Assembly: GCF_013340205.1 (NCBI RefSeq)
Contig: NZ_BJTG01000002.1
Location: 62,001-126,000, forward strand
Direction: 5' to 3'
Origin: Anaeromyxobacter diazotrophicus
Lineage (GTDB): Bacteria > Myxococcota > Myxococcia > Myxococcales > Anaeromyxobacteraceae
Length of the DNA stretch: 64,000 bases
The notes under the pieces are model-generated. The model saw only the letters and a program-made list of their open reading frames with translations. It made no database searches and was not told the origin of the DNA. Positions 1 through 64,000 of this stretch are shown one piece after another. Positions within the stretch are counted from its first letter, which is position 1, and each line of letters starts with the position of its first letter. The position numbers and the translations under genes were made by a program.

Positions 1-557
1 CGGCGCGGCCGAACCCGTACCGCTGGGCGCGGGTGGACGCCTGGCTGCGCGAGCTGGGGCCGGAGGGCGACGGCGACCCCCTGGTCGCGGCCGCCATGCC
101 CATGCTGCTCGACGAGCTGGCGCACGCGCGCACCCTGCCGCCCGGCCCGGCCGGCCTGGTCCACGGCGACCTGTTCCTCGACAACGTGCTGTGGGTGGGC
201 GAGCGGGTCTCGGCCCTGCTCGACTGGGAGATGAGCTGCGTCGACGCCTTCGCCTACGACCTCGGCGTGGCCGTGAACGCGTGGTGCTACGGCGAGCGGC
301 ACGAGCCGGCGCTGGCGCGGGCACTGCTGGCCGGCTACCAGGCGGAGCGCCCCCTCGACGCCGCCACCGCCGGCGCGCTCTACGCGCACACCCGCTACGT
401 GGCGCTGCGCTACACCGCCTCCCGCATCCACGCGTTCCACCGCGCGACGCTCTCGGCCGACCGGCTGGCCTGGAAGGACTGGACGCGCTACCGGGACCGC
501 CTGGCGGCGCTGCGCGCGCTCGGCGAGCCCGCCTTCCGCGCGCTCCTGGGCCTGTAG
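1..557 (+). CDS. thrB: Homoserine kinase type II (ThrB), C-terminal part, cut by the window edge
   Basis: Phosphorylates homoserine in threonine synthesis. It is the aminoglycoside-phosphotransferase-fold kinase, not the GHMP type. The frame is open from base 3, so the N-lobe lies outside the window; the GTG at 33 is internal. What remains has the catalytic loop HGDLFLDN, the metal-binding stretch LLDWEMSCVDAFAYDL and the family signature VNAWCYGE, followed by LLAGYQAERPL and a helical C-terminal end. These match ThrB proteins of Pseudomonas and Rhizobium type from memory. Another APH-fold kinase is possible, but the DAFAYDL...NAWC stretch favours ThrB. The gene ends convergently with the lipoprotein gene at 589. 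Confidence 0.7.
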   Translation, partial: ARPNPYRWARVDAWLRELGPEGDGDPLVAAAMPMLLDELAHARTLPPGPAGLVHGDLFLDNVLWVGERVSALLDWEMSCVDAFAYDLGVAVNAWCYGERHEPALARALLAGYQAERPLDAATAGALYAHTRYVALRYTASRIHAFHRATLSADRLAWKDWTRYRDRLAALRALGEPAFRALLGL

Positions 558-50538: not shown

Positions 50539-50705
50539 CGTCGTTTCGGGCGACGTGGTGCGCTTTGTGGTGCGCCACGAGGTGCTCTAGTCTCGTCGCC
50601 CATGCGACGGGCCGCTTCAACCACCGCGCGGCCGAGCGCGTGGTGGCTAGCGCAGAGTCGCGCGCCGACAGGCCCTCCATCGTCACCGGGGATGTATATG
50701 GGCGT

Positions 50706-52334
50706 ATGCGCTGGATCGCCCCCACGGAGAAAGACCTCGCAACCGAAACGCTCGAGAAGCGGCTGTGGACCGCTGCCGATGAGCTTCGTGCGAACAGTGG
50801 TCTCACCTCGGCGCAGTACGGCCAGCCCATTCTCGGCCTCATCTTCCTCCGCTTCGCCGACGCCAAGTTCGCGGCCCGCCGCGCTGCGCTGGACAAGGTC
50901 GCGACGGGCCGGCGCGGCTCGCGCGTCGACGAGCCGACCGCCTACCACGAGAAGGGCGTGCTGTACCTCGCGCCCGCGGCGCGCTTCGACGGCCTACGCG
51001 ACTACCCGGAGGGCGGCAAGAACGGAAAGTCGCTCGGGCAGGCCATCGACGACGCGATGCGCGCCATAGAGGAGGCCAACCCGCAGCTCTCGGGCGTCCT
51101 CCCCAAGGCCTACTCCGGGTTCAATGCGCGCCTGCTGAAGGAGCTGCTTAAGATCTTCTCCACCATCCCGGTGGACCTCGAAGGCGACTCGTTCGGGAAG
51201 ATCTACGAGTACTTCCTCGCCGAGTTCGCCATGGCGGAGGGGCAGGGCGGCGGCGAGTTCTACACGCCGCTTTCCATCGTCCGCCTCCTCGTCGAGATCC
51301 TGGAGCCATTCAAAGGTCGCGTGCTCGATCCCGCCTGCGGCTCCGGTGGCATGTTCGTGCAGAGCGCTCGGTTCGTGGCGGAGCATCGGAAGAACGGCGC
51401 CACGGACGAGCTGTCAATTCACGGGGTCGAGAAGGTCGATTCGACCGGCCGCCTCTGCCGCATGAACCTGGCCGTCCACGGCCTCGAGGGCACGATCCGT
51501 CACGGCGGCGAGCTGAACAGCTACTACGACGACCCGCACAACGCGGTGGGCAGCTTCGACTTCGTGCTCGCGAATCCGCCCTTCAACGTGAACAACGTGG
51601 ACAAGGATCGGCTCAAGGACGCGGTCGGGCCCAGCCGCCGGTTCCCGTTCGGCCTGCCGCGGCCCGACAACGCGAACTACCTCTGGATCCAGCTCTTCTA
51701 CTCGGCGCTCGACGCCAGCGGCCGCGCCGGGTTCGTCATGGCGAACTCGGCGTCGGATGCGCGCAACTCGGAGCAGGAGATTCGGAAGCAGCTCATCGAG
51801 TCGCGCGCTGTCGACGTGATGGTCTCGGTCGGCTCGAACATGTTCTACACGGTGACGCTGCCGGTGACGCTCTGGTTCCTGGATCGCGGCAAGCCCAAGG
51901 AACGCCGAGACAAGGTGCTGTTCCTCGATCTGCGGAACATCTACCGCCAGATCGACCGCGCCCACCGCGACTGGACCGAGGCGCAGATCGGCTTCATCGC
52001 CAACGTGGTGCGGCTGTACCGCGGCGAGCAGGTGGACCTCACCTTCGGCGGCGCCGAGGCGGACGCGAAGCTGCGCGACGTGTTCGGCAAGAACCCGAAG
52101 TACGCCGATGTGGCCGGATTCTGCAAGGTCGCCAGCGTGAAGGAGATCGAGGCGCAGGGCTGGAGCCTCAACCCCGGTAGATACGTCGGCGTCGCGCCCG
52201 GGGAAGAGGTGACTGACGAGGACTTCAAGGCGCAATTCGAGGCGCTCAACGAGGAACTCGAGACGCTTACGGCCGAGGCGCGGAAGCTGGAAGAGACGAT
52301 CGCGAAGAACGCGGCGGAGATCCTGCAGCCGTGA
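50706..52334 (+). CDS. hsdM: Type I restriction-modification system, DNA methyltransferase subunit HsdM
   Basis: 542 residues from ATG 50706 ([21 protein letters not shown]); the frame is open further upstream, but the extra 47 codons do not look family-like. The N-terminal HsdM_N helical domain is followed by the N6-adenine methylase fold: SAM motif [16 protein letters not shown] near 208 and catalytic NPPF at 290-293, plus [17 protein letters not shown]. The C-terminus is coiled-coil-like. It methylates adenine in a bipartite site defined by HsdS. hsdS overlaps its stop codon. The operon begins 209 bases after tRNA-Pro. Confidence 0.95.
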
Positions 52335-53611
52335 TGGACACCATCTCGATAGCGGATCTGGTCCGAGAAGGTGCCATCCTCGACATCCAGGATGGGAATC
52401 ACGGTGAGAAGCATCCAACCGCCGCTGACTATGTCGATTCGGACGGGGTGCCGTTCTTGATGGCGCGGGACTTTCCGAACGGCAGTCTCGATGTCAGCAA
52501 TGTTACGCTGCTGCGCCGAGACGTCGCGTCTAAGTTGCGCGTTGGCTTCGCCAAGCCGGGCGACGTGCTGCTGACGCACAAGGGAACGATCGGCGCTACA
52601 GGAATTGTGCCGAACGGGTTCGATTACGTCATGCTCACGCCCCAGGTGACGTACTACCGCACGGATCCTCGAAAGCTACTGAACGTCTACCTGCGGTGCG
52701 CGTTCAGAGCGCCCGCCTTCCAGCAGCAGCTCGCTGCCTTTTCCGCGCAATCCACCCGCCCGTTCGTCAGCATCTCAGCGCAGCGGTCATTGGTTGTGCC
52801 CGTGGCGCCATACTCGACGCAGCGACGGATCGCGACGCTCGTGTCCAGTTACGACGACCTCATCGCCAACGGCGAGCAGCGAATTCGGGTGCTCGAGGGA
52901 ATGGTGCGAACCATTTACCGCGAGTGGTTCGTGTTGTTCCGCTACTTCGGTCGCCAGAAGGTGCAGGTTGTGTCGTCGCCTACAGGTCCAATCCCGAAGA
53001 CTTGGACGGCGACGACGCTCGGCGCTGTCGTTGAAGCGGAAACCGGGAAGCGACCGAAGGGGGGTGCATCCTCGGTAGAGGACGGAGTTCCCTCCGTCGG
53101 AGCAGAGAATGTGAACGGGCTGGGCCGGCACGACTACGCTGTTGAGAAGTACGTCCCACGCGCATTCTTTGAACAGATGAGGAGCGGTGTTGTCCGAGAT
53201 CGGGACGTCGCTCTCTATAAGGACGGCGCTTACATTGGCAGGTCGACATATTTCCGAGATGGGTTCCCACACCAAACGTTTGCGGTGAATGAGCACGTGT
53301 TTCTGCTGAGGACTGTAAGCCGGCGGCTCGGTCCGAACATGCTCTACTTATGGCTACAGCAGCCCGAAACTGTTCAGACGATCCGCTCCAAGAACGCTAA
53401 TGCTGCGCAGCCTGGAATCAATCGAACTATCCTGAACGGATTACCTATTACTATTCCGTCGGAGGATGTTGCGGTTCGGTTCGAATCGCTCGTCGAGCCT
53501 TTCCTGGCTGCCATCGTCACGCTGGCGAAGCAGCGCGAACTGCTCCGTCGTGCGCGCGACATTCTTCTTGTGCGGCTCTTCTCTGGTAGGCTTCGAGTCG
53601 GCACCGCATGA
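52331..53611 (+). CDS. hsdS: Type I restriction-modification system, specificity subunit HsdS
   Basis: 426 residues; GTG 52331 or ATG 52334 are both possible, overlapping the hsdM stop. There are two target-recognition domains, each ending in a helix. The first has [29 protein letters not shown] and the helical [28 protein letters not shown] (read in parts). The second begins near residue 220 ([27 protein letters not shown]) and has the parallel [15 protein letters not shown] and [15 protein letters not shown]. The base composition is visibly less GC-rich than its neighbours, as is common for exchanged specificity genes. The recognised DNA site cannot be read from the sequence. Confidence 0.92.
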
Positions 53612-56600
53612 CACCCCACGCCTACACCGAGCTGGCGCTGGTCGAGGCTGCGACGATGGAAGTGCTCGCGTCGCTCGACTGGCCGACGGTGTCGGCGGCG
53701 GACGAGACCTTCAATCCCGACGGGACGCTGGGGAGAGAGTCGGCGCGGGAGACGGCGCTCCTCCCGCGCCTCCGTGCGGCGCTTGCGAAGCTGAACCAGG
53801 GTGTGCCCGCTGCGGCGCTCCAGCTCGCCGTCGACGAGCTGCTCCGGGATCGCCTCGCCATGGGTGCTGCGGCCGCGAATCGCGAGGTGCACGCTCTCCT
53901 CACGGAGGGCGTGCAGGTCTCGGTGATGAACCCCGAAACGCGAGAGCAGGAGCTGCGCACGATCCGGCTCGTCGATTGGGAGCACCCGGAGCAGAACGAT
54001 TTCCTCGCCGTCGAGCAGCTCTCGCTCGAGGGTCCGCTCTACACCTGCATCCCGGACGTCGTGCTGTTCGTGAACGGCCTGCCGTGGGTCGTCATCGAGC
54101 TGAAGAAGCCCGGCGTCCCGGTGCGGCAAGCGTTCGACGAGAACCTCACCAGCTACAAGCACCCGCAGAACGGCGTCCCGCAGCTCTTCGCCTACAACGC
54201 GCTGCTCGTCGCGTCGAACGGCACGGACGCGAAGGTGGGCTCCCTCACCGCGGACTGGGATCGCTTCTTCGAGTGGAAGCGCATCGAGCGCGAGGACGAG
54301 CCGCGGCGCGTCTCGTTGGAGGTGCTGCTGCGCGGGACATGTGAGAAGGGACGGCTCCTCGACCTCGTCCGCAGTTTCTCGCTCTTCTCCGCGCACAAGA
54401 CGGGCTTGGTCAAGGTCCTGGCCCAGAACCATCAGTATCTCGGCGTGAACAGCGCCATCCGCCAGGCGCTCGCAGCACGCGAGGCGGGACACGGGCGCGC
54501 GGGCGTCTTCTGGCAGACGCAGGGCTCGGGCAAGAGCTTCTCGATGGTATTCTTCGCGCAGAAGATCCTGCGCACAGTCCCCGGGAACTGGACGTTCGTC
54601 GTCGTCACCGATCGCGTCGAGCTGGACGATCAGATCGCGAAGACCTTCGCCGCGTGCGGAGCCGTCGCCGACGCGACGGCGTGTCACGCCTCGAGCGGCG
54701 CCCACCTACGCCAGCTCCTGGGCGAGAACCACCGTTACGTCTTCACTCTCCTCCACAAGTTCCAGACGGCGGAAGTGCTGAACGACCGGCGCGACGTCAT
54801 CGTCATCGCCGACGAGGCGCACCGTTCGCAGTACGACCAGCTCGCCATGAACATGCGGGCGGCGCTGCCGAACGCGCTCTTCGTCGCCTTCACGGGCACG
54901 CCTCTCATCGCAGGCGAGGAGCGAACGCGCGAGGTGTTCGGCGATTACGTCAGCATCTACGATTTCCAGCAGTCGATCGAGGACGGCGCAACCGTCCCGC
55001 TCTTCTACGAGAACCGCACGCCCGAGTTGCACCTCAGGAATCCCGACCTGAACGATGAGCTGTATGAGGTCATCGACGAGGCGGGCCTCGACGATGAGAG
55101 CGAGGCGCGGCTCGCGCGATTGCTCGGGCAGCGCTACCACCTCATCACCCGGGACGACCGGCTTGACGCCGTCGCGAGGGACATCGTTCAGCACTTCCTC
55201 GGCCGCGGGTTCCAGGGGAAGGCGATGGTGGTCTCGATCGACAAAGCCACGGCGCTCCGCACCTACGACAAGGTCCGGCGCGCGTGGGAGGCGGAGAAGG
55301 CGCGCGTCAGGGCCGCCATCGACTACGGCAAGCCCGGCGAGGAGCTGGACGGCCTCGGCGAGCGGCTACGCCGGCTCGACACGGTGGACATGGCGGTCGT
55401 CGTCTCGCCTGGGCAGAACGAGATCGAGGAGATGCGCCAGCTCGGCCTCGACATCGTCCCGCACCGCAGGCGCATGGTGGATTCGCAGCCACCGCTCGAC
55501 GAGAAGTTCAAGGACCCGGACGATCCGCTCTCGCTCGTTTTCGTCTGCGCGATGTGGCTCACGGGCTTCGACGCCCCAAGCTGCTCGACCATCTACCTCG
55601 ACAAGCCGATGCGGAACCACACGCTCATGCAGACCATCGCGCGTGCCAACCGCGTCTATCCGGGAAAGCAGAGCGGGCTCATCGTCGACTACGCCAACGT
55701 GTTCCAGTCGCTCGAGAAGGCGCTCGCGATCTACGGCGCCGCGCGCGGAGTCAGGACGCCGGTGCGCGAGAAGGACGAGCTCGTGGGCGAGCTGCGCGCC
55801 GCAGTCGCCGACATCGAGGCCTTCTGTGCCGCTGCCGGCGTTCAGCTCCCGGCTATCGAAGCGAGCACGAACGCGCTGGAGCGGCTCACTCGTGTCGGAG
55901 AGGCTTCGAACGCGCTCCTCGCCTCCGACGAACGCCGCAAGGCCTTCCTTGCACACGCGCGCCTCGCCGAGCGCCTGTACGCGGCCATCAAGCCCCACCG
56001 AAGCGCAGCCGAATTCGCGGTGCGCATGTCCACCGTGACCGCGTTGGCGGAGCGGATCCGCGCCGAGACCACGCCTGAGCAGGCCGATCTCACCTCCGTC
56101 TTGGCTCGCATCGGCGACGTCCTCGACCGCTCGATCCAGGCGCCGGCGGAGGTGAGGGACCGGCCGGGGCCGCCGCCCATCGACCTCTCCCGGATCGACT
56201 TCAACGCGCTTGCGGCACGGTTCCAAGCGTCGGAGACGAAGAACCTCGATCTGGAGCGGCTGAAGGCGGCGATCCGCGCCCAGCTCGACAAGCTCATCGC
56301 CGCGAACGAGACGCGCGTGGACCTCCGCGAGCGCTTCGAGGCGCTCATCGAGGAATACAACGTCGGGTCGAAGCAGATCGAGCAGCTATTCCATGACCTG
56401 CTGGCGCTCAGTCAGACGCTTACTGACGAGCAGAGCCGGCACGTGCGCGAGCAGCTCACGGAGGAAGAGTTGGTCGTGTTCGACCTCCTCACTCGGCCCG
56501 GGCCGGAGCTCACGACCGACGAGCGAAGCGAGGTGAAGAAGGTCGCCCGTCAACTTCTGCACAGGATTCGCGGCATCCTGACTGTCGACTGGCGCCTCAC

Positions 56601-56742
56601 GGCGCAGGCTCGCGCCCGCGTGCGGAGCGCGATCGAGGAGGCCCTCGACGAGGGCCTGCCCCGCGCGTACACGCCGGAGGTGTTCAAGACGAAGGCTGGC
56701 GCCGTGTTCCAGCACGTGTACGAGCACGCCTCGGCCGCATAG
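53608..56742 (+). CDS. hsdR: Type I restriction endonuclease, HsdR
   Basis: 1,044 residues, overlapping hsdS by 4 bases. The N-terminal nuclease domain has the PD-(D/E)xK elements IPDVVLFVNGLPWVVIELKKP (read in parts: Asp in CIPDVVLF and the E-L-K core VIELKKPG). The SF2 motor follows: Walker A TQGSGKSFSM near residue 303, DEAH in VIADEAHRSQYD, FTGTPLI, and later LTGFDAPSCSTIYLDKPM and IARANRVYPGKQSG. The C-terminal helical region contacts the methylase. It cuts DNA away from unmethylated sites after ATP-driven translocation. All motifs are intact, so the system appears functional. Confidence 0.95.
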   Translation: MTPHAYTELALVEAATMEVLASLDWPTVSAADETFNPDGTLGRESARETALLPRLRAALAKLNQGVPAAALQLAVDELLRDRLAMGAAAANREVHALLTEGVQVSVMNPETREQELRTIRLVDWEHPEQNDFLAVEQLSLEGPLYTCIPDVVLFVNGLPWVVIELKKPGVPVRQAFDENLTSYKHPQNGVPQLFAYNALLVASNGTDAKVGSLTADWDRFFEWKRIEREDEPRRVSLEVLLRGTCEKGRLLDLVRSFSLFSAHKTGLVKVLAQNHQYLGVNSAIRQALAAREAGHGRAGVFWQTQGSGKSFSMVFFAQKILRTVPGNWTFVVVTDRVELDDQIAKTFAACGAVADATACHASSGAHLRQLLGENHRYVFTLLHKFQTAEVLNDRRDVIVIADEAHRSQYDQLAMNMRAALPNALFVAFTGTPLIAGEERTREVFGDYVSIYDFQQSIEDGATVPLFYENRTPELHLRNPDLNDELYEVIDEAGLDDESEARLARLLGQRYHLITRDDRLDAVARDIVQHFLGRGFQGKAMVVSIDKATALRTYDKVRRAWEAEKARVRAAIDYGKPGEELDGLGERLRRLDTVDMAVVVSPGQNEIEEMRQLGLDIVPHRRRMVDSQPPLDEKFKDPDDPLSLVFVCAMWLTGFDAPSCSTIYLDKPMRNHTLMQTIARANRVYPGKQSGLIVDYANVFQSLEKALAIYGAARGVRTPVREKDELVGELRAAVADIEAFCAAAGVQLPAIEASTNALERLTRVGEASNALLASDERRKAFLAHARLAERLYAAIKPHRSAAEFAVRMSTVTALAERIRAETTPEQADLTSVLARIGDVLDRSIQAPAEVRDRPGPPPIDLSRIDFNALAARFQASETKNLDLERLKAAIRAQLDKLIAANETRVDLRERFEALIEEYNVGSKQIEQLFHDLLALSQTLTDEQSRHVREQLTEEELVVFDLLTRPGPELTTDERSEVKKVARQLLHRIRGILTVDWRLTAQARARVRSAIEEALDEGLPRAYTPEVFKTKAGAVFQHVYEHASAA

Positions 56743-56780
56743 CTTTGGATGGCTAGCGGACCTGGGGTCGCCAGCGCACG

Positions 56781-57113
56781 CTAGTCGGGCAGTGCTGCAA
56801 GATCGCTAGCGAGCATTTCGAGGACGCCGTCCGGGTTCACGGTGCCCATTACGAGCCACGCAAACCACTCATCGATCACTCCGAGCGCCTCTGGCGTGAG
56901 CTCGAAGTCCGTCATCTTGTAGCTCGCTGGATCATTCCCGATCGGCTGCGTGTGATCCAGCCGTAGGATCGACTCGGAGCTCCCGCCGATCGGGAGTCGA
57001 TCGTATGCGTACTGCGGATACTCGCCTCGTGAGATCCGCCGCACGAAAGCCTCAGGCCATCCAGCTCGTTTTCCGTTCTGGGCTTGATCGGATTCGGTGG
57101 ACAGGTTGGTCAC
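56781..57113 (-). pseudogene. C-terminal remnant of a hypothetical gene, truncated by the IS3-family element
   Basis: An open frame of 110 codons whose first dozen codons (MTNLSTESDQAQ) are encoded by the end of the IS3-family element. The native part begins about at 57078 and includes WPEAFVRRISRGEYPQYAYD, RLDHTQPIGNDPASYKMTDF and GVIDEWFAWLVMGTVNPDG. It is acidic and soluble with no motif I recognise. The upstream part of the gene is not found on the other side of the insertion, so the insertion was accompanied by deletion or the gene ran another way. It is convergent with hsdR and might be a former defence-island gene. Confidence 0.5.
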
Positions 57114-58012
57114 GCCGCTGACTGCTCGGCGCGTGCTGCTCTCTCGAACTCCGCCGGGCTCATGTAACCGAGCACCGAGTGCCTGCGCTGCTGGTTGTAG
57201 AAGACCTCAATGTAGTCGAACAACTGCTCCTTCGCGGCCGCGTGGCTCTCGAAGCGTTCGCCCAGCTCGGACTTGAGCGTCGAGAACCAGCTCTCCATAG
57301 CAGCGTTGTCGTAGACGTTGCCGCGCCGGCTCATGCTGCACGTGATCCCGTGCTCGGCGAGGACGCGCTGGAACGCTTCGCCCGTGTACTGCGTGCCCTG
57401 GTCTGAGTGATGGAGCAGTCCGGCGTCCGGTCGACGCCGGCGCACGGCCATGTCGAGCGCGCGGGTCACGAGCTGCTGGTCGTGCACCGCGCTCGTGGCC
57501 CAGCCCACGACGAAGCGCGAGTACAGGTCGACGACGACCGCGAGGTACAGCCAGCCATCGCCGGCACGGAGGTAGGTCGTGTCCGCAGCCCAGCTCTGGT
57601 TCGGCGCTGATGGGCGGAACTGCCGGTCGAGCAGGTTCGGAGCGACCTGCTGGGCGTTCTCGACCGTCGCCATTGCGCGGTAACGGCGCCGCTGGCGGGC
57701 AGCGATCTTCTCGGCCTGCATCAAGCGAATCACGCGGCCGCGGCTCACGAACACGCCGCGCGCCTCGAGCTCCGCATGAATGCGCGGGCTGCCGTACGTG
57801 CAGCGGCTCCGCTGGTGGACCTCGCGGATCAGAATCGTGAGCCGGGCGTCCTCGACGGCCCGCTTCGACGGCAGCCGTCCGCACCAGGCGTAGAACCCTG
57901 CCCGCGAGACCTCGAGCAACCTGCAGAGCTTCGTGATCCGGTGGATCGCCTTCTCCGCGTCGATGAACGCGAACTTCACTTCTGCTGCTTCGCGAAGACG
58001 GCGGCGGTGCAT
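57110..58012 (-). CDS. IS3-family transposase OrfB (DDE), 5' end altered by the nested IS
   Basis: 300 residues. HTH_21-type start (FIDAEKAIHRITKLCRLLEVSRAGFYAW in parts), then the rve integrase core with an intact DDE set: Asp in WAADTTYLRAGDGW, Asp in LLHHSDQGTQYTG and Glu in NAAMESWFSTLKSE. In an intact IS3, OrfB is made by -1 frameshifting from orfA. Here the IS30-family insert separates them, and the frame now opens at an ATG (58012) only a couple of bases outside the insert. Its first codons (MHRRRLREAAE) correspond to the former frameshift-region sequence. Expression is uncertain. Confidence 0.8.
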   Translation of the reverse strand: MHRRRLREAAEVKFAFIDAEKAIHRITKLCRLLEVSRAGFYAWCGRLPSKRAVEDARLTILIREVHQRSRCTYGSPRIHAELEARGVFVSRGRVIRLMQAEKIAARQRRRYRAMATVENAQQVAPNLLDRQFRPSAPNQSWAADTTYLRAGDGWLYLAVVVDLYSRFVVGWATSAVHDQQLVTRALDMAVRRRRPDAGLLHHSDQGTQYTGEAFQRVLAEHGITCSMSRRGNVYDNAAMESWFSTLKSELGERFESHAAAKEQLFDYIEVFYNQQRRHSVLGYMSPAEFERAARAEQSAA

Positions 58013-58016
58013 TCAG

Positions 58017-58031
58017 CCGGTCATCGCAACG
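58017..58031 (+). repeat. Left inverted repeat of the IS30-family element
   Basis: CCGGTCATCGCAACG, the exact reverse complement of the right copy at 59192-59206. Confidence 0.85.
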
Positions 58032-58052
58032 CCAGAGTTGGTAGAGGTGCTC

Positions 58053-59210
58053 ATGGCGCGACGGCGGCGGAACCTGACTCCAGCGGAACGCGCTGAGTTG
58101 TGGCGGCGCTGGAAGGAAGGGCAATCCCTCAGCGACATCGGGCGTGCACTTGGGAAGCACGCGGCCACTGTGTACGCCATCGTCGTCGCGCACGGTGGGA
58201 TCCCGCCCGCCCCACGGCATCGCGCATCGCGGGTCCTTTCCTTTGCGGAACGCGAGGAGATCTCACGCGGCGCATCCGCAGGACTCTCGTGCCGCACGAT
58301 CGCGGACACGCTTGGAAGAGCGCCGTCCACCGTGGCCCGTGAAATCGAGCGGAATGGCGGAAGAGAGTGCTACCGCGCTTCGGCTGCGGATGCGAACGCA
58401 TGGCGGCGAGCACGACGCCCGAAGCTCACGAAGCTCGGAGGGAACGCCGCCCTCCAGCAGCTCGTAGCCGAGAAGCTGGCTTTAGACTGGTCACCCGAGC
58501 AGATCTCGGGGTGGCTCCGGCGTGAGCGCGCCGACCAGCCGCACATGCAGGTGTCGCACGAGACGATCTACAAGAGCCTCTTCATCCAGGCGCGCGGAGT
58601 CCTGAAGAAGGAACTGCGCGACCACCTGCGTTCAGGCCGCCGGGCCCGCCGCTCGAGCAGGGCGACAACCGCAGGACAGCAGCGCGGCTGCATTGTTGGC
58701 GGCGTCTCGATTCGGGAGCGGCCGCCCGAGGCAGAGGATCGGGCGCTGCCGGGGCACTGGGAAGGCGATCTCCTCACGGGGACCAACACGAGCCACATCG
58801 CGACGCTCGTCGAGCGGCACTCTCGCTTCACGATGCTGGTGAAGGTCGACGGCAAGGACACTGCGAACGTGGTCGCCGCGGTCGCTCGCCAGGTGCGCAC
58901 CCTTCCGCTCGAGCTGCGGAAGTCGCTGACTTGGGACCGTGGAACCGAGATGGCGCATCACAAGCAGTTCACGCTTGCGACGAACCTGAAGGTCTACTTC
59001 TGCGACCCGCAGAGCCCATGGCAACGCGGGACCAACGAGAATACGAACCGCCTCCTGCGGCAGTACTTCCCGAAGGGGATGTCGTTCGCAGGCTACTCCC
59101 AGAATGACCTGGACGCGGTCGCACTACGGCTCAACCAGCGCCCGAGAAAGACACTGGGCTTCGAAACGCCAGCCGGTAGACTGGACCGAATCGTTGCGAT
59201 GACCGGTTGA
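58053..59210 (+). CDS. IS30-family transposase
   Basis: 385 residues from ATG 58053, which follows TAGAGGTG. N-terminal helix-turn-helix: LTPAERAELWRRWKEGQSLSD and IGRALGKHAATVYAIV; a second HTH follows (LSFAEREEISRGASAGLSCR, IADTLGRAPSTVAREIERNGG). The rve catalytic core has an intact DDE set: Asp in HWEGDLLTGTNTSHIATLVE, Asp in LTWDRGTEMAHH and Glu in WQRGTNENTNRLLRQYFPKG. There is no frameshift, so the element is probably able to move. It is on the strand opposite to the IS3 genes. Confidence 0.9.
   Translation: MARRRRNLTPAERAELWRRWKEGQSLSDIGRALGKHAATVYAIVVAHGGIPPAPRHRASRVLSFAEREEISRGASAGLSCRTIADTLGRAPSTVAREIERNGGRECYRASAADANAWRRARRPKLTKLGGNAALQQLVAEKLALDWSPEQISGWLRRERADQPHMQVSHETIYKSLFIQARGVLKKELRDHLRSGRRARRSSRATTAGQQRGCIVGGVSIRERPPEAEDRALPGHWEGDLLTGTNTSHIATLVERHSRFTMLVKVDGKDTANVVAAVARQVRTLPLELRKSLTWDRGTEMAHHKQFTLATNLKVYFCDPQSPWQRGTNENTNRLLRQYFPKGMSFAGYSQNDLDAVALRLNQRPRKTLGFETPAGRLDRIVAMTG
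59192..59206 (-). repeat. Right inverted repeat of the IS30-family element
   Basis: CGTTGCGATGACCGG, the exact reverse complement of the left copy at 58017-58031. It overlaps the last codons of the transposase gene. Confidence 0.85.
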
Positions 59211-59498
59211 GCCCGCTGCGGCTTTTTTTAGGATCTCCCGATCCTCGCGGAGCTCGCGATTCTCCTTCCGAAGACGTGCGAGCTCTTCCTTCTCCGCCGT
59301 CGTGAGCGCGCCCGGCGGACCTTTGCCCCTGTCCACCTTCGCCTGGGCGACCCACGCCCGGACCGCGGTCTCGGTGAGGTCGAGCTCGCGTGCCACCTGC
59401 CCGGCGGTCTTGCCGCCCGACAGGACCTTCTTCACGACCTCGGCCTTGAACTCGTCGGTGAAGCTACGCCGCGGCCGCCGCTTCTTCCCTTCGGGCAT
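59211..59498 (-). pseudogene. IS3-family OrfA, 3' end replaced by IS30 sequence
   Basis: Starting at ATG 59498 (MPEGKKRRPRRSFTDEFKAE), it encodes the HTH_8/Tnp_1 domain (VVKKVLSGGKTAGQVARELD, TETAVRAWVAQAK) and the leucine-zipper-like end (LARLRKENRELREDREILKK). An A7 run on the coding strand (T7 at 59223-59229) is the expected -1 frameshift site. Immediately after it the frame runs into the IS30-family element and reads about 28 foreign codons (to 59124) before stopping. Frameshifting can therefore no longer produce the OrfAB transposase. ATG 59519 is an alternative start. Confidence 0.7.
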
Positions 59499-59587
59499 GT
59501 CGGACACCGTAGACGCCATTCGCTAGGCGTCCACTAAACTCGATCAAGCCCAAGCCGAGCTGTCCGTTCCTCCAGCAGCTCGCCGAG

Positions 59588-59809
59588 ATGGAGGCGATGG
59601 CCGCCCGGATCCCGAGGAACCGGATCGGCCTCGTCGCCGTCGACGGCTTCAGCTGGCCGCCCGAGCTGTACCTGATCGCGACCTTCGCGACTCGGGAAGA
59701 GGCCGAAGCCGCGCTGGCCGCGCACCAGGGCGCGGACGCAAAGCAGGCTGACTGGATCTCTGATCGCTATTTCCTCTACGAGGGGACGGGCGAGCCAGCG
59801 GCCGAGTAG
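59588..59809 (+). CDS. Small hypothetical protein, possibly 5'-truncated by the IS3-family element
   Basis: 73 residues from ATG 59588, but the same frame is open back into the IS edge at 59552 and reads gene-like residues (PSCPFLQQLAE) before this ATG. The native start may therefore have been removed. The chain ARIPRNRIGLVAVDGFSWPPELYLIATFATREEAEAAL (read in parts) looks like a small alpha/beta fold; WISDRYFLYEGTG is near the end. No family is recognised. No ribosome site is evident. It may be a remnant. Confidence 0.4.
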   Translation: MEAMAARIPRNRIGLVAVDGFSWPPELYLIATFATREEAEAALAAHQGADAKQADWISDRYFLYEGTGEPAAE

Positions 59810-60120
59810 CGGAGGCCTCGCGCAACACGTTGCGTTCTTCCCCCTCCGGAAGATCCATCAGATCCGCCCGCAGCACGCGACGAGCGTTTCCCCCCGGACC
59901 TCGAAGGATTGGGGTGCAACTTCCGCACTCGCGGTGTCGGCACCTAGTTGCGCGGAATGCCCTACGTCAGGGGGCCTTTACGCACCCCCACCAGCAGCAT
60001 GCGCATGACCTGGCCGCGAGAAAATCGGCCCGCGCGCTCGCGCAAACCGTTTGCGCGGGTCGGTGGTCGGAGTCGTGGCCGCGCGCCGGGAGATCGCCTG
60101 GGGGGGGCGCAGGCGCGGGC
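59810..60120. other. Gap of about 310 bases without a supported gene
   Basis: This is the 3' flank of the E1-JAB gene. I find no convincing coding frame; the open frames have the composition of GC-rich shadows. It holds a hyphenated palindrome CGCGCAAAC-C-GTTTGCGCG at 60039-60057. Read on the minus strand, it is followed about a dozen bases later by TTTT, so it may be part of a terminator for the ubiquitin-like operon. Confidence 0.4.
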
Positions 60121-61482
60121 TCACTTCGCCCACACCACCCCCAGGAAGTCCCGCCCGTCCCCTCGCCCCCACAGCGCCTTCCGCATGCAGATGCAGTCCG
60201 GAGCCGGCGGCTGCCGGTTCCGGCTCACGAGGGAGTCCTGGAACCGGAGGAGGACCTCCGTGGACCGGCGCTCCTCGCCCATGAAGCCGGTGAGGCGGTG
60301 GAGCATCTCGGTGACGCCCTGGGCGGCGACGGCGGTCGTGAAGGTGATCACCGCCGGGTCGTTCTCCTCCAGCTCGGGCGCGTATCGTTCGGCCGCCCGG
60401 GCTCGCCGCTCCACCGGATCCAGCGCCTCCAGGGCGATCGCGGCCGCGGTGATGCGACCCCGGCAGAAGAGACACGCCTCACCGGGCATGAGAGTGGTCA
60501 CCCGACCGAAGATGCCGCGGAGCACGCCATCGGCGGAGTCGATCTTCACCGCCACGTCGAAGGTGGGGATGTAGTAGCGCGTGGCGAGCGCCACGAGCAG
60601 CGACCGGGGCGTGGCCTTGTCCGTGCAGCCGAAGACGATGTCGCAGTCGCGCAGGCGCTTCGCCACGGCCTCCTCGTCGATGTACGCGGGGATGGCGGTC
60701 ACCTTCGTCCTCAGGCCGATGGCGGCGAGGTGGGCCCGCGCCAGCTCGGCCTTGTTCATCCCGGTCGCGGCGACCGTCGAGCCGTAGACCCGGGTGACGT
60801 TGGTCGCCGTCAGGGTGTCGCCGTCGAAGATCGACAGCTCGCCGACCCCGAGCCTCGCGAGCTGCTCCGCCACCGCGGACCCGGTTCCACCTGCGCCGAC
60901 GACGCCGACGTGCAGGGCGTGGAGCAGCCGCTGGACATCCTCGCCGAAGGCCCGGACCTGGCGGTCGTAGAACTCGGGGAGGGGGCGCGCCTCGCCCACC
61001 TGGTCGTGGAACCGGAACCGGCCTCCGAGGACCCGGATCCGGGCGATGTCGGTCCACCGACCGCGGCCCCACACCCGGCCGCGAAGGTCGGACCGCGACG
61101 CGATCACCAGGCTTCCGTGCAGCCGCCCGGGAACGCGGGCGTCGAGGAACGTCATCAGCTTCGGCTCCTCGTGGTCGTCCTGGGGCGAGAACTCGCCGAC
61201 GCCGCCGGGGTGGGAGTGCACGAATACCACCGAGCTGCCGTCGGCCTCCGCGCGCTTCGCGGCGTTCGCGTACGCCTGGGAGTCGATGCTGAGGCGCTGC
61301 GGCTCGCGGACGAGATAGTGGGCCCGCTCGACGGGGACGACCTCGCGCACCAGGAGGCGGTCCTCGCGCTCGGTGTGGCTGGTCCCGCAGATCAGGAAGG
61401 CCGCGCCCTCGTTCGGCTGCTCCGCGAAGATGGCGGCGAGCAGCTCGTCGAGCTGCGGCTCCAGGATGGTCAGGGTCACCAT
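60121..61482 (-). CDS. JAB (JAMM) protease-like domain fused to an E1/ThiF-type adenylyltransferase
   Basis: 453 residues. Residues 1-150 are a Prok-JAB domain with a complete JAMM site: Glu25, HSH at 89-91, Ser99 and Asp102 (HSHPGGVGEFSPQD). Such domains cut isopeptide or peptide bonds after ubiquitin-like proteins. Residues about 185-420 are an E1-like domain: nucleotide site GVVGAGGTGSAV (193-204), DGDTLTATNVTR (Asp220, Asp222, Asn228, Arg231), Lys244 and GCTDKATPR (Cys286, Asp288). C337-x2-C340 and C430-x-C432 could bind zinc. Which cysteine, if any, is catalytic is unclear. It starts 3 bases after the Ubl-E2 stop, so the two proteins are almost certainly made together. E1 activation and JAB removal are thus in one polypeptide. 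Confidence 0.8.
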   Translation of the reverse strand: MVTLTILEPQLDELLAAIFAEQPNEGAAFLICGTSHTEREDRLLVREVVPVERAHYLVREPQRLSIDSQAYANAAKRAEADGSSVVFVHSHPGGVGEFSPQDDHEEPKLMTFLDARVPGRLHGSLVIASRSDLRGRVWGRGRWTDIARIRVLGGRFRFHDQVGEARPLPEFYDRQVRAFGEDVQRLLHALHVGVVGAGGTGSAVAEQLARLGVGELSIFDGDTLTATNVTRVYGSTVAATGMNKAELARAHLAAIGLRTKVTAIPAYIDEEAVAKRLRDCDIVFGCTDKATPRSLLVALATRYYIPTFDVAVKIDSADGVLRGIFGRVTTLMPGEACLFCRGRITAAAIALEALDPVERRARAAERYAPELEENDPAVITFTTAVAAQGVTEMLHRLTGFMGEERRSTEVLLRFQDSLVSRNRQPPAPDCICMRKALWGRGDGRDFLGVVWAK

Positions 61483-61485
61483 GGC

Positions 61486-62325
61486 CTACCGGCCTCCGCG
61501 CAGCTCGGCGAGGACGAGCGCCAGGAACGACCCGATCCCGTCCACCCCGGGCCGCCAGGGGGCCGCGAGGTGCCGCGAGAAGCGCTGCCACCGGCGGCCG
61601 GCGTGGTCCTCGAAGTGGTCGGCGCTCACCGGGTATCCGCCGGTCCGGAGCTGGAGCGGCGGGTCCACCCAGAACATGTCCAGGCCCGCGTTCGGGTAAC
61701 CGTTCGGGATGCGGAGCATGAGGTCCGTCTGGGCGCGGTCGTACCGCGCCCCCGACACGGCGAGGTCCTTGGCGATGAAGAAGACCTCCGACGCGCCCCG
61801 GAGCAGCTCGTAGGAGATCCCCTTGGCGGCGAGGTACTCCTCGTCCGCCTCGGGCAGGCGCGGGCCCGAGTCGCCGGGGTTGATGGTCTTCGGGGCGGAG
61901 AAGAAGTGCGAGCCGGGCTTCAGCTCGATCGCGTCCGCGTCGCCGACCTTCACGTCGTCGGCGGGCCCCGCGACGACCGGGAACAGATCCCGGTCCGGGC
62001 CGATGGGCGGCGTCACGAGCGCCCGGATGTCGGCGCCCGTCATGGTGGCGGCGGACGCCTTGTAGGGCTTGCCGTCGATCTGGATCGGGATCTGATGGTC
62101 GCCGGGGTTGATCGTCGTCGGGGCGGAGAAGAGGTGCGTCCCGGGCTTCAGCTCGATGACGTCGGAGTCGCCGACCTTCCGGTCGTCCGCGGGGCCGGGG
62201 ACGACGAGGAACAGGTCGCGGTCGGGGCCGATGGGCGGCGAGGCGAGGGCGCGGATCTGCGCGCCCGTCATCGTCGGGGCCGGGGCGTCGTACTTCTTCT
62301 GGTCGATGAGGATGGGGATGTGCAT
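61486..62325 (-). CDS. Tandem ubiquitin-like (Multi_ubiq) protein fused to an E2-like domain (Prok-E2_E type)
   Basis: 279 residues from ATG 62325, supported by AAAGGA about 9 bases upstream; an in-frame GTG-type extension upstream is not needed. Residues 1-76 and 77-152 are two ubiquitin-like repeats, about 57 of 75 aligned positions identical. Each has IPIxID...YxA, TMTGAxIRAL, PPIGPDRDLF, VGDxDxIELKPG and ends FSAPxTINPGD. Residues about 153-279 resemble the prokaryotic E2-like family E: YELLRGASEVFFIAKDLAVS, LRIPNGYPNAGLDMFWVDPP, WQRFSRHLAAPWRPGVDGIG. The whole protein has no cysteine, so a thioester-forming E2 active site is absent. Neither repeat ends in Gly-Gly; both end Pro-Gly-Asp. 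The family names are from memory. Confidence 0.75.
   Translation of the reverse strand: MHIPILIDQKKYDAPAPTMTGAQIRALASPPIGPDRDLFLVVPGPADDRKVGDSDVIELKPGTHLFSAPTTINPGDHQIPIQIDGKPYKASAATMTGADIRALVTPPIGPDRDLFPVVAGPADDVKVGDADAIELKPGSHFFSAPKTINPGDSGPRLPEADEEYLAAKGISYELLRGASEVFFIAKDLAVSGARYDRAQTDLMLRIPNGYPNAGLDMFWVDPPLQLRTGGYPVSADHFEDHAGRRWQRFSRHLAAPWRPGVDGIGSFLALVLAELRGGR
61870..62325 (-). repeat. Two 228-base direct repeats encoding the ubiquitin-like domains
   Basis: Unit 1 is 62098-62325 and unit 2 is 61870-62097. They are in frame and have a period of exactly 76 codons. The DNA is also closely similar, for example around GGGCTTCAGCTCGAT, GCGTC.GCGTCGCCGACCTT and GGTCCGGGCCGATGGGCGGCG in both. 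The similarity indicates a fairly recent internal duplication or ongoing homogenisation. Confidence 0.8.
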
Positions 62326-62523
62326 GGCGTACGGTCCTTTCGTTCGGGCGGTCCCGGGGCGCGGCACCATGCCGGCGCTCCCTGGCCACCTAAGAAGGGA
62401 TGCTCCCCAGCCGGGATTTTTCGCGGTGCGTCCAGGCGGATCTGCTAACGTCCCGTCGCCACAGGTGTTCTAGGGGCGCCGCGAAAACCTGCCGGACGGG
62501 AGCATCAACCGGGTGGAGGTGCG
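62326..62523. promoter_or_regulatory. Divergent control region between the ubiquitin-like operon and the sigma-like operon
   Basis: 198 bases without a gene. They must hold the start sites of both transcripts. A TGCTAACGT -10-like box at 62443-62451 faces the sigma-like gene, but no -35 match lies at the right distance. A short A/T-rich patch (GGGATTTTTCGCGG) is at about 62414. I see no clear operator palindrome. Confidence 0.35.
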
Positions 62524-63129
62524 GTGGACGGGAAGACCCGAGCGTATTTCGTGAAGGTCTTGCCGACCGTCTATCCGACGGTCCTGGCTCGCGCCGTCAT
62601 GCTCGTGCGCCGGCGCCGGTGGTTCGTGAAGCGGTACGGTAGCGAGAAGGAGGCCGCGGAGGAGTTGGCGCAGGACGCGGTCCTCCGGACGATGACGGGG
62701 AAGCGGACCTGGAACCCGGCCAAGGTTCCGGACCTCGACTATTTCCTGAGCGGCGTGATGCGGAGCATTCTCAGCGCGGCGAGCAAGAGCCCGACGTTCC
62801 TCACCGAGCCGCTGAGCACGGTCCCGGTGGCGCACGACGGGGACGAGGCCTCTTCGGCCGACGAGGTCCTCGGGACGCTCGACGATCGCGCCCGCGGCAT
62901 GAAGGATCCGGAGACGGCGCTGCTGGACGCGGAGGCCTGCTCGATGCTGGTGGACCGCGCGCTCGACGCCGCTGGAGACGACGCCTCCGCGGCCAAGGTC
63001 GTCGACGCGGTGGTCGATGGCTGCGAGAAGGTGGCAGAGATCGCGGATGCCACCGGCCTCACCGCCGAGAAGATCTATTCCGCTACCCGCAAGATCCGGG
63101 ATCGGTACCGGAGGGGAGCGAAGCGATGA
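62524..63129 (+). CDS. Sigma-70-like (ECF-type) RNA polymerase sigma factor
   Basis: 201 residues from GTG 62524, which follows GGAGGT. Region 2-like part: EKEAAEELAQDAVLRTMTGK and DLDYFLSGVMRSILSAASK (resembling A-D-L-x-Q-E and the W-x-x-x-I-x-R-N stretch of sigma factors). Then an acidic linker of about 60 residues. Region 4-like part: KVAEIADATGLTAEKIYSATRKIRDRYRRG, read in parts, an HTH typical of sigma region 4. The similarity is distant, so it may be a specialised or degenerate sigma factor. The 139-residue gene overlaps its stop by 4 bases. It is divergent from the ubiquitin-like operon, a good position to control it. Confidence 0.6.
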   Translation: MDGKTRAYFVKVLPTVYPTVLARAVMLVRRRRWFVKRYGSEKEAAEELAQDAVLRTMTGKRTWNPAKVPDLDYFLSGVMRSILSAASKSPTFLTEPLSTVPVAHDGDEASSADEVLGTLDDRARGMKDPETALLDAEACSMLVDRALDAAGDDASAAKVVDAVVDGCEKVAEIADATGLTAEKIYSATRKIRDRYRRGAKR

Positions 63130-63545
63130 AGAAGCCCCCGCCTAAGAACACTGACGCCGAAGTCGCCTCGCGACTCGAAGGGCTCTTCGAGCAGGTCCCA
63201 CTTGAACCACGTGAGATCGAGGAAACGCTCCGAGAGGTGGGGATAGATGCGAAGTCCGCCACGGAGCGGATGATGGCGCGCGTGTTGGAAGTTCAGGAGC
63301 ACGAACGTCGTGAACGCTTGGCTCAGGCCGACTCGGAACGAAAGGCAGATGCCGTTAGGCACCAGTCGAAGCGCGGTGGCGCGTCGCTGCGGAGCCGGGC
63401 CGAGATGCTCGCAAGGTTCTTCGAGATCCGAACCCAGCACCCCGCGGCAGCCGCGATGTTTCGTGACTTTCAGTCCGCTTCGGACGAGGACCTACGGTCC
63501 CTTCTCGACGACCTCGAAGAACTGATCTCCGGTGGCGACTCGTAA
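63126..63545 (+). CDS. Hypothetical protein coupled to the sigma-like gene
   Basis: 139 residues, soluble, highly charged and helical. No family is recognised. Visible segments are EVASRLEGLFEQVPLEPREI, ATERMMARVLEVQEHERRER, RAEMLARFFEIRTQHPAAA and a C-terminal acidic helix DLRSLLDDLEELISGGDS. It starts at an ATGA overlap with the sigma-like gene and its end overlaps, or lies just before, the ImmA/IrrE gene. By position it could be a regulator of the sigma factor or the substrate of the metallopeptidase; that is inference only. Confidence 0.55.
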   Translation: MKKPPPKNTDAEVASRLEGLFEQVPLEPREIEETLREVGIDAKSATERMMARVLEVQEHERRERLAQADSERKADAVRHQSKRGGASLRSRAEMLARFFEIRTQHPAAAAMFRDFQSASDEDLRSLLDDLEELISGGDS

Positions 63546-63561
63546 GCCACAAGATGCCGAC

Positions 63562-64000
63562 ATGGCGAGGGGTGAGCGCGTCGCCAGGGAGGTGTACGCG
63601 GAGATCGGACTCGCTCACCCGACCGAGATTCCGATCGAGACGCTCGCGTACATGCGCGGCGCTCGCGTTCGCGATGTCCGGATGCCAGGGGCGCAGGGGC
63701 GGCTCGCCCGGCTCGGGTCGAAGGCAATTATCGCGGTCAGCGACGCGGTCACCTACGCGCCGCGGCGCCGGTTCGTCATCGCGCACGAGGTCGGTCACCT
63801 GGAGCTGCACGAGGCGGAGAACCAGATCGCGCTCTGCGACGAGGCCAAGATCGACGAGGTCTACGACCAGGGCACCGAGCGGGAGTCGAACGCCTTCGCG
63901 ACAGAGCTGCTCATGCCCCGCGCCCTGTGGGCAAAGCGCGTGGACGTGGCGAAGCCCGACCTGAACGTGGTGGCGAAGCTCGCGGACGAGTTCCAGGTCA
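63562..64000 (+). CDS. ImmA/IrrE-family metallopeptidase, cut by the window edge
   Basis: 146 codons are visible from ATG 63562. An in-frame GTG at 63532, overlapping the upstream gene, is an alternative start that would add 10 residues. The zinc site HEVGH is at residues 75-79 in FVIAHEVGHLELHE, and the third-ligand region ERESNAFATELLMPRALW is typical of the family. ImmA and IrrE cleave repressors (ImmR, DdrO) on a stress signal. Here no adjacent XRE repressor is seen; the coupled 139-residue protein is the only obvious partner. The C-terminus lies outside the window. Confidence 0.85.
   Translation, partial: MARGERVAREVYAEIGLAHPTEIPIETLAYMRGARVRDVRMPGAQGRLARLGSKAIIAVSDAVTYAPRRRFVIAHEVGHLELHEAENQIALCDEAKIDEVYDQGTERESNAFATELLMPRALWAKRVDVAKPDLNVVAKLADEFQV

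What the first reader, a model, noticed from the sequence alone, without database searches (positions are those of the whole stretch)
60121..61482. JAMM and E1 activities fused in one chain
The JAMM site (Glu25, HSH, Ser99, Asp102) and the E1 nucleotide site are both complete. Fusing the activating and the removing enzyme forces equal dose and proximity, suggesting that processing of the polyubiquitin-like precursor precedes activation on the same protein. Four cysteines (337, 340, 430, 432) could form a zinc site, leaving Cys286 or Cys280 as possible catalytic residues.
Basis: partly seen in the sequence, partly recalled or inferred. Interest (0 to 1): 0.6.

Follow-up and report, generated by a model that had tools for sequence, protein, structure and literature searches.

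The report
Bacterial ubiquitin-like operon (Bub type)
The gene is a known kind of bacterial enzyme thought to both attach and remove a ubiquitin-like tag; it has a tyrosine where ordinary enzymes of this kind have their working cysteine, and it sits next to a set of switch genes that also neighbours three other immune-type operons.

Summary
On the MINUS strand, 60121-61482 encodes a 453-residue protein with an N-terminal JAMM domain and a C-terminal E1 (ThiF) domain. Both sites are complete and invariant in 26 of 26 aligned full-length proteins. The fusion is not new: it is "BubCD" of Bub operons. Citrobacter BubCD matches almost end to end (phmmer 5e-33) and heads the structural matches. Iyer et al. 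2006 described this operon type, including the Ubl-E2 fusion next door.

The cysteine reading is partly wrong. C337/C340/C430/C432 look like the MoeB-type zinc site, but Cys286 and Cys280 are unlikely nucleophiles. The E1 catalytic-cysteine position holds Tyr367, invariant in 26 of 26 and equivalent to Citrobacter Y370, mutated in PDB 9EAV. The E2 partner has no cysteine but an invariant serine (25 of 25). An ester relay is likely. Precursor trimming by JAMM is plausible: both Ubl repeats end INPG.

New here: the divergent neighbours (sigma-like, 139-aa protein, CapP-like peptidase) form a cassette also found beside TIR, Pycsar-type and Bil-like operons, with a shared upstream site.

The parts
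60121..61482 (-). BubCD: JAMM metalloprotease fused to E1-like (ThiF) adenylyltransferase, 453 aa
61093..61458 (-). JAMM (Prok-JAB) domain, residues 9-130; E25, H89, H91, S99, D102
   Evidence: 1.2e-10; 26 of 26 conserved
60238..60969 (-). E1/ThiF domain, residues 172-415; nucleotide loop G196-S202, D220/D222, N228, R231, K244, D288
   Evidence: (3.1e-34)
60382..60384 (-). codon of Tyr367, at the catalytic-cysteine position of canonical E1s (MoeB C187)
   Evidence: 26 of 26; hhalign (low per-column confidence); equals Citrobacter Y370, mutated in 9EAV
61486..62325 (-). BubA-BubB fusion: two Ubl repeats plus Prok-E2_E domain, 279 aa from ATG 62325 (a longer frame opens at 62370); no cysteine
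62098..62322 (-). Ubl repeat 1, ends INPG|D
   Evidence: 57 of 75 residues identical to repeat 2
61870..62094 (-). Ubl repeat 2, ends INPG|D
61501..61857 (-). E2-like domain (Prok-E2_E), Ser250-x-His252 motif, no Cys
   Evidence: 2.4e-34; S250 25 of 25, H252 24 of 25
62400..62422 (-). shared site GAAA-N9-TGSSSAGCAY, 75 bp before the BubAB start; probable promoter or operator
62524..63129 (+). sigma-70-like protein, divergent from the Bub operon, 201 aa
   Evidence: TIGR02937 6.7e-6 and Sigma70_r2 1.4e-4, both below their cut-offs; homologue in G107 is over the Pfam cut-off
63126..63545 (+). 139-aa protein, weakly CapH-like C-terminal part; proposed anti-sigma factor
   Evidence: capH 0.028, homologue in G107 0.00096; order kept in 4 of 4 cassettes
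63532..64000 (+). CapP-like M78 (ImmA/IrrE) peptidase; runs past the window end to position 64332 of the same contig
   Evidence: capP 5.5e-55 on the whole protein

Best explanation
The locus is a Bub (bacterial ubiquitination-like) operon, probably acquired with a mobile island. A first gene makes two tandem Ubl units fused to an E2-like domain; the second, the finding, makes JAMM-E1 (BubCD). Likely working: (1) JAMM cuts after the glycine of each INPG end, releasing Ubl and the E2 domain; (2) the E1 domain adenylates the Ubl carboxy end with ATP; (3) Ubl passes to Tyr367, which stands where other E1s have cysteine, as an oxyester; (4) it passes through the E2-like domain, whose invariant Ser250-x-His252 replaces the cysteine, onto a target; (5) the same JAMM domain removes Ubl from targets. 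Shown here: family, complete sites, absence of catalytic cysteines, invariant Tyr and Ser, INPG ends. Inferred: every catalytic step and the target.
For: Near end-to-end match to Citrobacter BubCD, 5e-33 over 16-401; the top five structural rows are all BubCD, Z 22.7-24.8. The E2 part matches Citrobacter BubB, 2.4e-8. Multi_ubiq plus Prok-E2_E next door. Tyr367 26 of 26; the only cysteine columns kept in more than half of the 26 are C280, C286 and the zinc set. 9EAV is titled BubCD(D104A/Y370F)-BubB-BubA(155-229); those are window D102 and Y367. INPG ends: four nearest relatives have free Ubls ending INPG plus 1-2 residues, and the window protein groups with just these four, support 99/99. Adenylation site intact.
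Against: No activity is shown. The Tyr367-MoeB C187 pairing has low per-column confidence. Why Y370 was mutated I could not read: the paper is not held. Iyer 2006 regarded the E2-like domain as catalytically inactive. The DUF6527 partner, found in 18 of 18 plasmid relatives fetched, is absent from this genome, so the operon may be incomplete. The structure model is weak: mean pLDDT 58, E1 C-terminal part under 50.
Confidence: 0.75

Rival explanations
1. Ordinary thioester E1: Cys286 (or Cys280) is the nucleophile.
For: C286 is kept in 25 of 26 proteins.
Against: C286 aligns with MoeB C128 in the DCTD loop, not with MoeB C187; C280 is 19 of 26; no cysteine column in the crossover region (window 341-395) reaches 5 of 26; the E2 partner of this operon has no cysteine to receive a thioester.
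Confidence: 0.07
2. Adenylation only: Ubl-AMP reacts directly with the target's acceptor group, the E2-like domain being a passive scaffold (RWD-like) and Tyr367 structural.
For: Iyer 2006 judged these E2-like domains inactive because cysteine is missing; an invariant Tyr can be structural.
Against: Ser250 is invariant (25 of 25) and, by its distance to the invariant W257, close to the place of the E2 cysteine (the E2 spacing is recalled); Y370F was chosen for a complex of BubCD, BubB and BubA.
Confidence: 0.2
3. Sulphur-carrier enzyme of the ThiF/MoeB sort, with JAMM trimming a sulphur carrier.
For: The E1 domain closely resembles MoeB (99.8% probability); JAMM and E1 genes occur together in sulphur-type operons (Iyer 2006).
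Against: An E2-like domain fused to tandem Ubls, no rhodanese domain or sulphur gene seen beside it, closest solved relatives are Bub proteins.
Confidence: 0.03

Closest known systems
Citrobacter Bub system (BubCD, BubB, BubA; PDB 9EA4, 9EA5, 9EA8, 9EAE, 9EAV)
   Same: JAMM-E1 fusion of nearly the same length and the same order; the JAMM Asp and the E1 Tyr at equivalent places; E2-like partner related to BubB
   Different: Citrobacter BubB was solved as a separate chain, whereas here Ubl and E2 are one chain; Citrobacter lacks the CxxC (T and D there), the window has it
Iyer et al. 2006 operon type 6e (polyUbl, inactive E2-like, JAB-E1, metal-binding protein)
   Same: same gene set; the Ubl-E2 fusion 'in some species' is noted there
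   Different: the metal-binding partner (taken to be DUF6527) is missing here; both Ubl repeats keep a cleavable INPG end
MoeB / ThiF (canonical E1-like)
   Same: nucleotide site, DCTD loop, zinc CxxC
   Different: Tyr instead of Cys at the C187 place; JAMM domain added; longer crossover region
CapH+CapP controllers of immune operons
   Same: CapP-like M78 peptidase beside an immune-type operon
   Different: a sigma-like protein and a 139-aa protein stand in place of the helix-turn-helix repressor CapH

Membership tests
Bub operon / BubCD | JAMM domain fused to the amino end of an E1-like domain | tested here: met
Bub operon / BubCD | full-length similarity to a named BubCD | tested here: met
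   phmmer 5e-33 over 16-401; Foldseek 4.4e-28, VIA Z 24.8 with rmsd 7.8 over 368
Bub operon / BubCD | Ubl (Multi_ubiq) gene and E2-like gene without catalytic Cys in the operon | tested here: met
Bub operon / BubCD | Tyr equivalent to Citrobacter Y370 (my own criterion, from a PDB title) | tested here: met
Bub operon / BubCD | DUF6527 partner (usual, not defining: Iyer 2006 says two or three further genes) | tested here: not met
   none in the genome; the control rang in 1 of 14 named genomes
Bub operon / BubCD | protein conjugation by Ubl | not testable with these tools
   needs biochemistry
Canonical thioester E1-E2 cascade | catalytic Cys in the E1 crossover region | tested here: not met
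   Tyr367 there, 26 of 26 (low per-column confidence of the pairing)
Canonical thioester E1-E2 cascade | catalytic Cys in the E2 | tested here: not met
   no Cys in the 279-aa partner
CapH+CapP controller | CapP-like M78 peptidase | tested here: met
   PADLOC capP 5.5e-55
CapH+CapP controller | helix-turn-helix repressor CapH | tested here: inconclusive
   139-aa protein: no Pfam family, capH only 0.028 over its C-terminal part

The most novel reading that the evidence does not exclude
The Bub operon is switched on by a portable sigma-factor cassette: a CapP-like peptidase, activated as known CapP is by single-stranded DNA, cuts the 139-aa anti-sigma factor and frees a sigma-like protein, which starts transcription at GAAA-N9-TGSSSAGCAY. 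The same cassette drives TIR, Pycsar-type and Bil-like operons in related genomes. This would be a further kind of immune-operon controller, acting by a released activator rather than by loss of a repressor.
Probability: 0.45. Interest if true: 0.72.

Novelty: new member of a known kind. Interest (0 to 1): 0.42.

Why it matters
As a JAMM-E1 fusion it is ordinary within Bub operons. Three points add value. It gives a case where two near-identical Ubl repeats and an E2 domain are one precursor with a cleavable INPG end in both repeats, a clean substrate for asking whether the fused JAMM domain matures Ubl. The invariant Tyr and Ser make ester-based (rather than thioester) Ubl transfer testable outside Citrobacter. 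And the sigma/139-aa/CapP cassette with its shared site suggests that genomes of this phylum control several immune-type operons through one sigma-based module, which would link ssDNA sensing to activation of transcription.

Tried and rejected
Structure prediction: the first job used the window plus L024 and L025 only, since only loci of the search for related loci or the DNA search may be sent; mean pLDDT 58, JAMM half mostly 70-87, E1 C-terminal part under 50. It cannot test the JAMM geometry or the Tyr367 surroundings; the solved BubCD serves instead. The second job (Ubl-Ubl-E2, two rows) gave pLDDT 39 and was not used.

The viral scan gave 32 loci; only L057 (a cut-off JAMM-E1 frame, 310 aa) resembles BubCD; the other 31 match the E1 part alone and were not aligned. 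Phage records: no match. The genome-contig scan with a single sequence found only 2. For the sigma-like and 139-aa proteins, plasmid searches found nothing.

Papers: Ye 2026, Gong 2025 and Chambers 2024 are not held, so Bub chemistry was judged from PDB titles and sequences; my recollection that oxyesters were reported for Bub is unverified. Six searches for Bub terms gave one useful primary paper (PMC13373217) and one review (PMC12687455, passages); one search gave Iyer 2006. Two searches for a sigma/CapP controller listed no paper on it (listings only). So that the cassette is undescribed rests on these two searches.

Shared site: found by eye after a 12-base match between two intergenic stretches, so it is post hoc. 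In 183 genomes of the phylum the pattern occurs in 84, mostly at unrelated places; it is not specific by itself.

Full report
What is there. The finding's coordinates hold one open frame on the minus strand, 453 aa. Pfam finds Prok-JAB (9-130) and ThiF (172-415), both over their cut-offs. Just upstream lies a frame with two Multi_ubiq stretches and a Prok-E2_E domain. Its likely start is ATG 62325, behind GAACGAAAGGA, giving 279 aa. I saw no further gene of the operon on the minus strand before the transposase genes. In 2-kb steps the stretch 50-64 kb has 62-72% G+C against 71-85% for the rest of the window; it holds type I restriction genes hsdM, hsdS and hsdR (50565-56742) and three transposase frames. 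This fits an acquired defence island (inference).

Known kind. phmmer against the PDB gives Citrobacter BubCD at 5e-33 over residues 16-401, far ahead of MoeB (6.5e-16); the E2 part gives Citrobacter BubB (2.4e-8). The AlphaFold model is weak (pLDDT 58), but its five best VIA rows are the five BubCD entries, Z 22.7-24.8 with rmsd 4.7-9.5 over 352-373 residues, ahead of SUMO E1 at 19.5. Iyer et al. 2006 (PMC1779556; section 14 and table passages read) describe operon type 6e: polyUbl, an E2-like domain without cysteine that can be fused to it, JAB fused to the amino end of E1, and a metal-binding protein. The EMBO J 2026 paper (PMC13373217; passages read) counts 544 Bub operons, 219 of them beside CapW or CapH+CapP, and says that phage defence by Bub has not been shown.

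Relatives. tblastn found 63 plasmid records with a relative, 58 covering at least 80% of the query. I fetched 18 of the 63, chosen to avoid near duplicates. DUF6527 is annotated in 16 of these 18 and is present unannotated in the other two. In this genome it is absent. Prok-E2_E occurs in 5 of 195 genomes of the phylum, and within the 24 genomes of the own family searched only here. The window protein groups with four BubCDs of alphaproteobacterial plasmids (L034, L035, L036, L051), support 99/99, at up to 41% identity. Those four share the INPG Ubl end. Horizontal gain is the simplest reading (inference).

Active sites. In 26 aligned full-length proteins the JAMM residues E25, H89, H91, S99 and D102 are 26 of 26, as are the E1 residues G196, G199, G201, S202, D220, D222, N228, R231, K244 and D288. 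Cysteines: C286 25, C280 19, C337 21, C340 21, C430 21, C432 17 of 26. The CxxC pair is lost together in L024, L025, L028, L044 and L050, and Citrobacter has T and D at those places, so the zinc site is common but dispensable. hhalign against 14 MoeB/ThiF-like sequences puts C337/C340 on MoeB C172/C175 and C286 on MoeB C128; with relaxed settings Tyr367 falls on MoeB C187, though that part has low confidence (a comparison of the C-terminal parts alone gives 20-26% probability). Tyr367 is 26 of 26. Chain indices run two ahead of the published numbering, since the JAMM Asp is index 106 and is called D104 in the titles; index Tyr372 is then Y370, aligned with window Y367. The PDB title of 9EAV names the double mutant D104A/Y370F in a complex with BubB and BubA. 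Why the authors changed Y370 I could not read. That MoeB C187 is the E1 catalytic-cysteine position is recalled.

E2 partner. In 25 aligned E2-like domains Ser250 is 25 of 25, His252 24 of 25, W257 25 of 25, Y210 25 of 25; the only column with four or more cysteines is confined to L034, L035, L036 and L051. L031 and L033 were not in that alignment; their frames read FSWH there. The spacing between Ser250 and W257 is close to that between the E2 cysteine and its WSP motif (recalled). Hence the proposal of an ester relay from Tyr to Ser, which is inference.

Precursor. The two Ubl repeats are identical in 57 of 75 residues and 179 of 225 bases, with 26 of the 46 differences at third positions, and each ends INPG|D. 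Of 14 relatives with a free Ubl gene, 5 end exactly in TEG (L041, L042, L044, L046, L050); the other 9 carry extra residues, four of them INPG plus 1-2. In the six other fusions aligned only the last Ubl has a terminal glycine motif; in five the first Ubl runs on (DRSF) without one, and L024 has a single clear Ubl. So this protein is closer to a eukaryotic polyubiquitin precursor than those are. A protease is needed; the fused JAMM domain is the obvious candidate. Since the JAMM site is kept even where no trimming is needed, a second role in removal is likely (inference).

Neighbouring controller. Divergent from the operon lie a sigma-like gene, a 139-aa gene and a CapP-like M78 peptidase gene (capP 5.5e-55). 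The sigma-like protein matches TIGR02937 only below its cut-off (6.7e-6); its homologue in G107 exceeds the Pfam Sigma70_r2 cut-off by 0.6 bit; those of G103 and G026 match no NCBIfam model at 0.01. Searching the phylum, the sigma-like protein is found in 4 of 189 genomes at 1e-5. In all 4 the three genes stand in the same order, each time head to head with a different immune-type operon: Bub (window); ThsB-like TIR (3.5e-31) in G107; PycTM, PycC (5.6e-186) and an E2-like gene in G103; a small protein with a PGGA end, a BilB-like E2 (6.6e-6) and a BilD-like E1 (3.1e-22) in G026, with a JAB-like HTHPSG reading between them (read by eye). A Paracoccus Bub plasmid (L048) has a weaker version (sigma 0.0011, 139-aa 2.5e-6, peptidase 7e-22). 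Upstream of the immune gene in all 4 lies GAAA-N9-TGSSSAGCAY, 56-75 bp before the start (G103 has a second copy at 152 bp). In the four genomes it occurs 6 times in about 36 Mb, all 6 in these gaps; the sixth, on the cassette side in G026, was not used to define it. The control pattern occurs once. Eleven of 23 columns are identical in all four; 300 shuffled sets reached at most 9. Against it: the site was found post hoc, three of the four genomes are of one family, and the pattern occurs in 84 of 183 genomes of the phylum at mostly unrelated places.

Judgement. As given, the finding is a correct reading of a known fusion (new member of a known kind), with a wrong guess on the catalytic residue and a fair guess on the zinc site and the precursor. 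The more novel matter is the controller beside it.

Noticed in passing
62524-64000 (+), continuing to 64332 of the contig; site 62400-62422 (-): Cassette sigma-like / 139-aa / CapP-like peptidase beside the Bub operon; the same cassette stands beside TIR, Pycsar-type and Bil-like operons in G107, G103 and G026, with a shared upstream site.
   Followed up: partly
window 59500-60120; whole genome G000: DUF6527 (usual Bub partner, 18 of 18 plasmid relatives fetched) is missing here and in the whole genome; transposase frames lie downstream of the operon.
   Followed up: partly
61870-62322 (-): Two Ubl repeats, 57 of 75 identical, both with a cleavable INPG end, unlike the other fused multi-Ubl proteins read.
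   Followed up: partly
50565-59519: Type I restriction-modification genes hsdM, hsdS, hsdR near the Bub operon, followed by three transposase frames at 57110-59519.
   Followed up: no
L034, L035, L036, L051 upstream of the Ubl gene: The four nearest relatives have a Fic-family gene and, in three, a CopG- or DUF6290-type small gene beside the Bub operon instead of a peptidase controller.
   Followed up: no
L057 2318-6435: A contig in the viral collection carries an M78 peptidase and a cut-off JAMM-E1 frame directly followed by a recombinase-like frame (my reading): perhaps an element inserted into a Bub operon.
   Followed up: no
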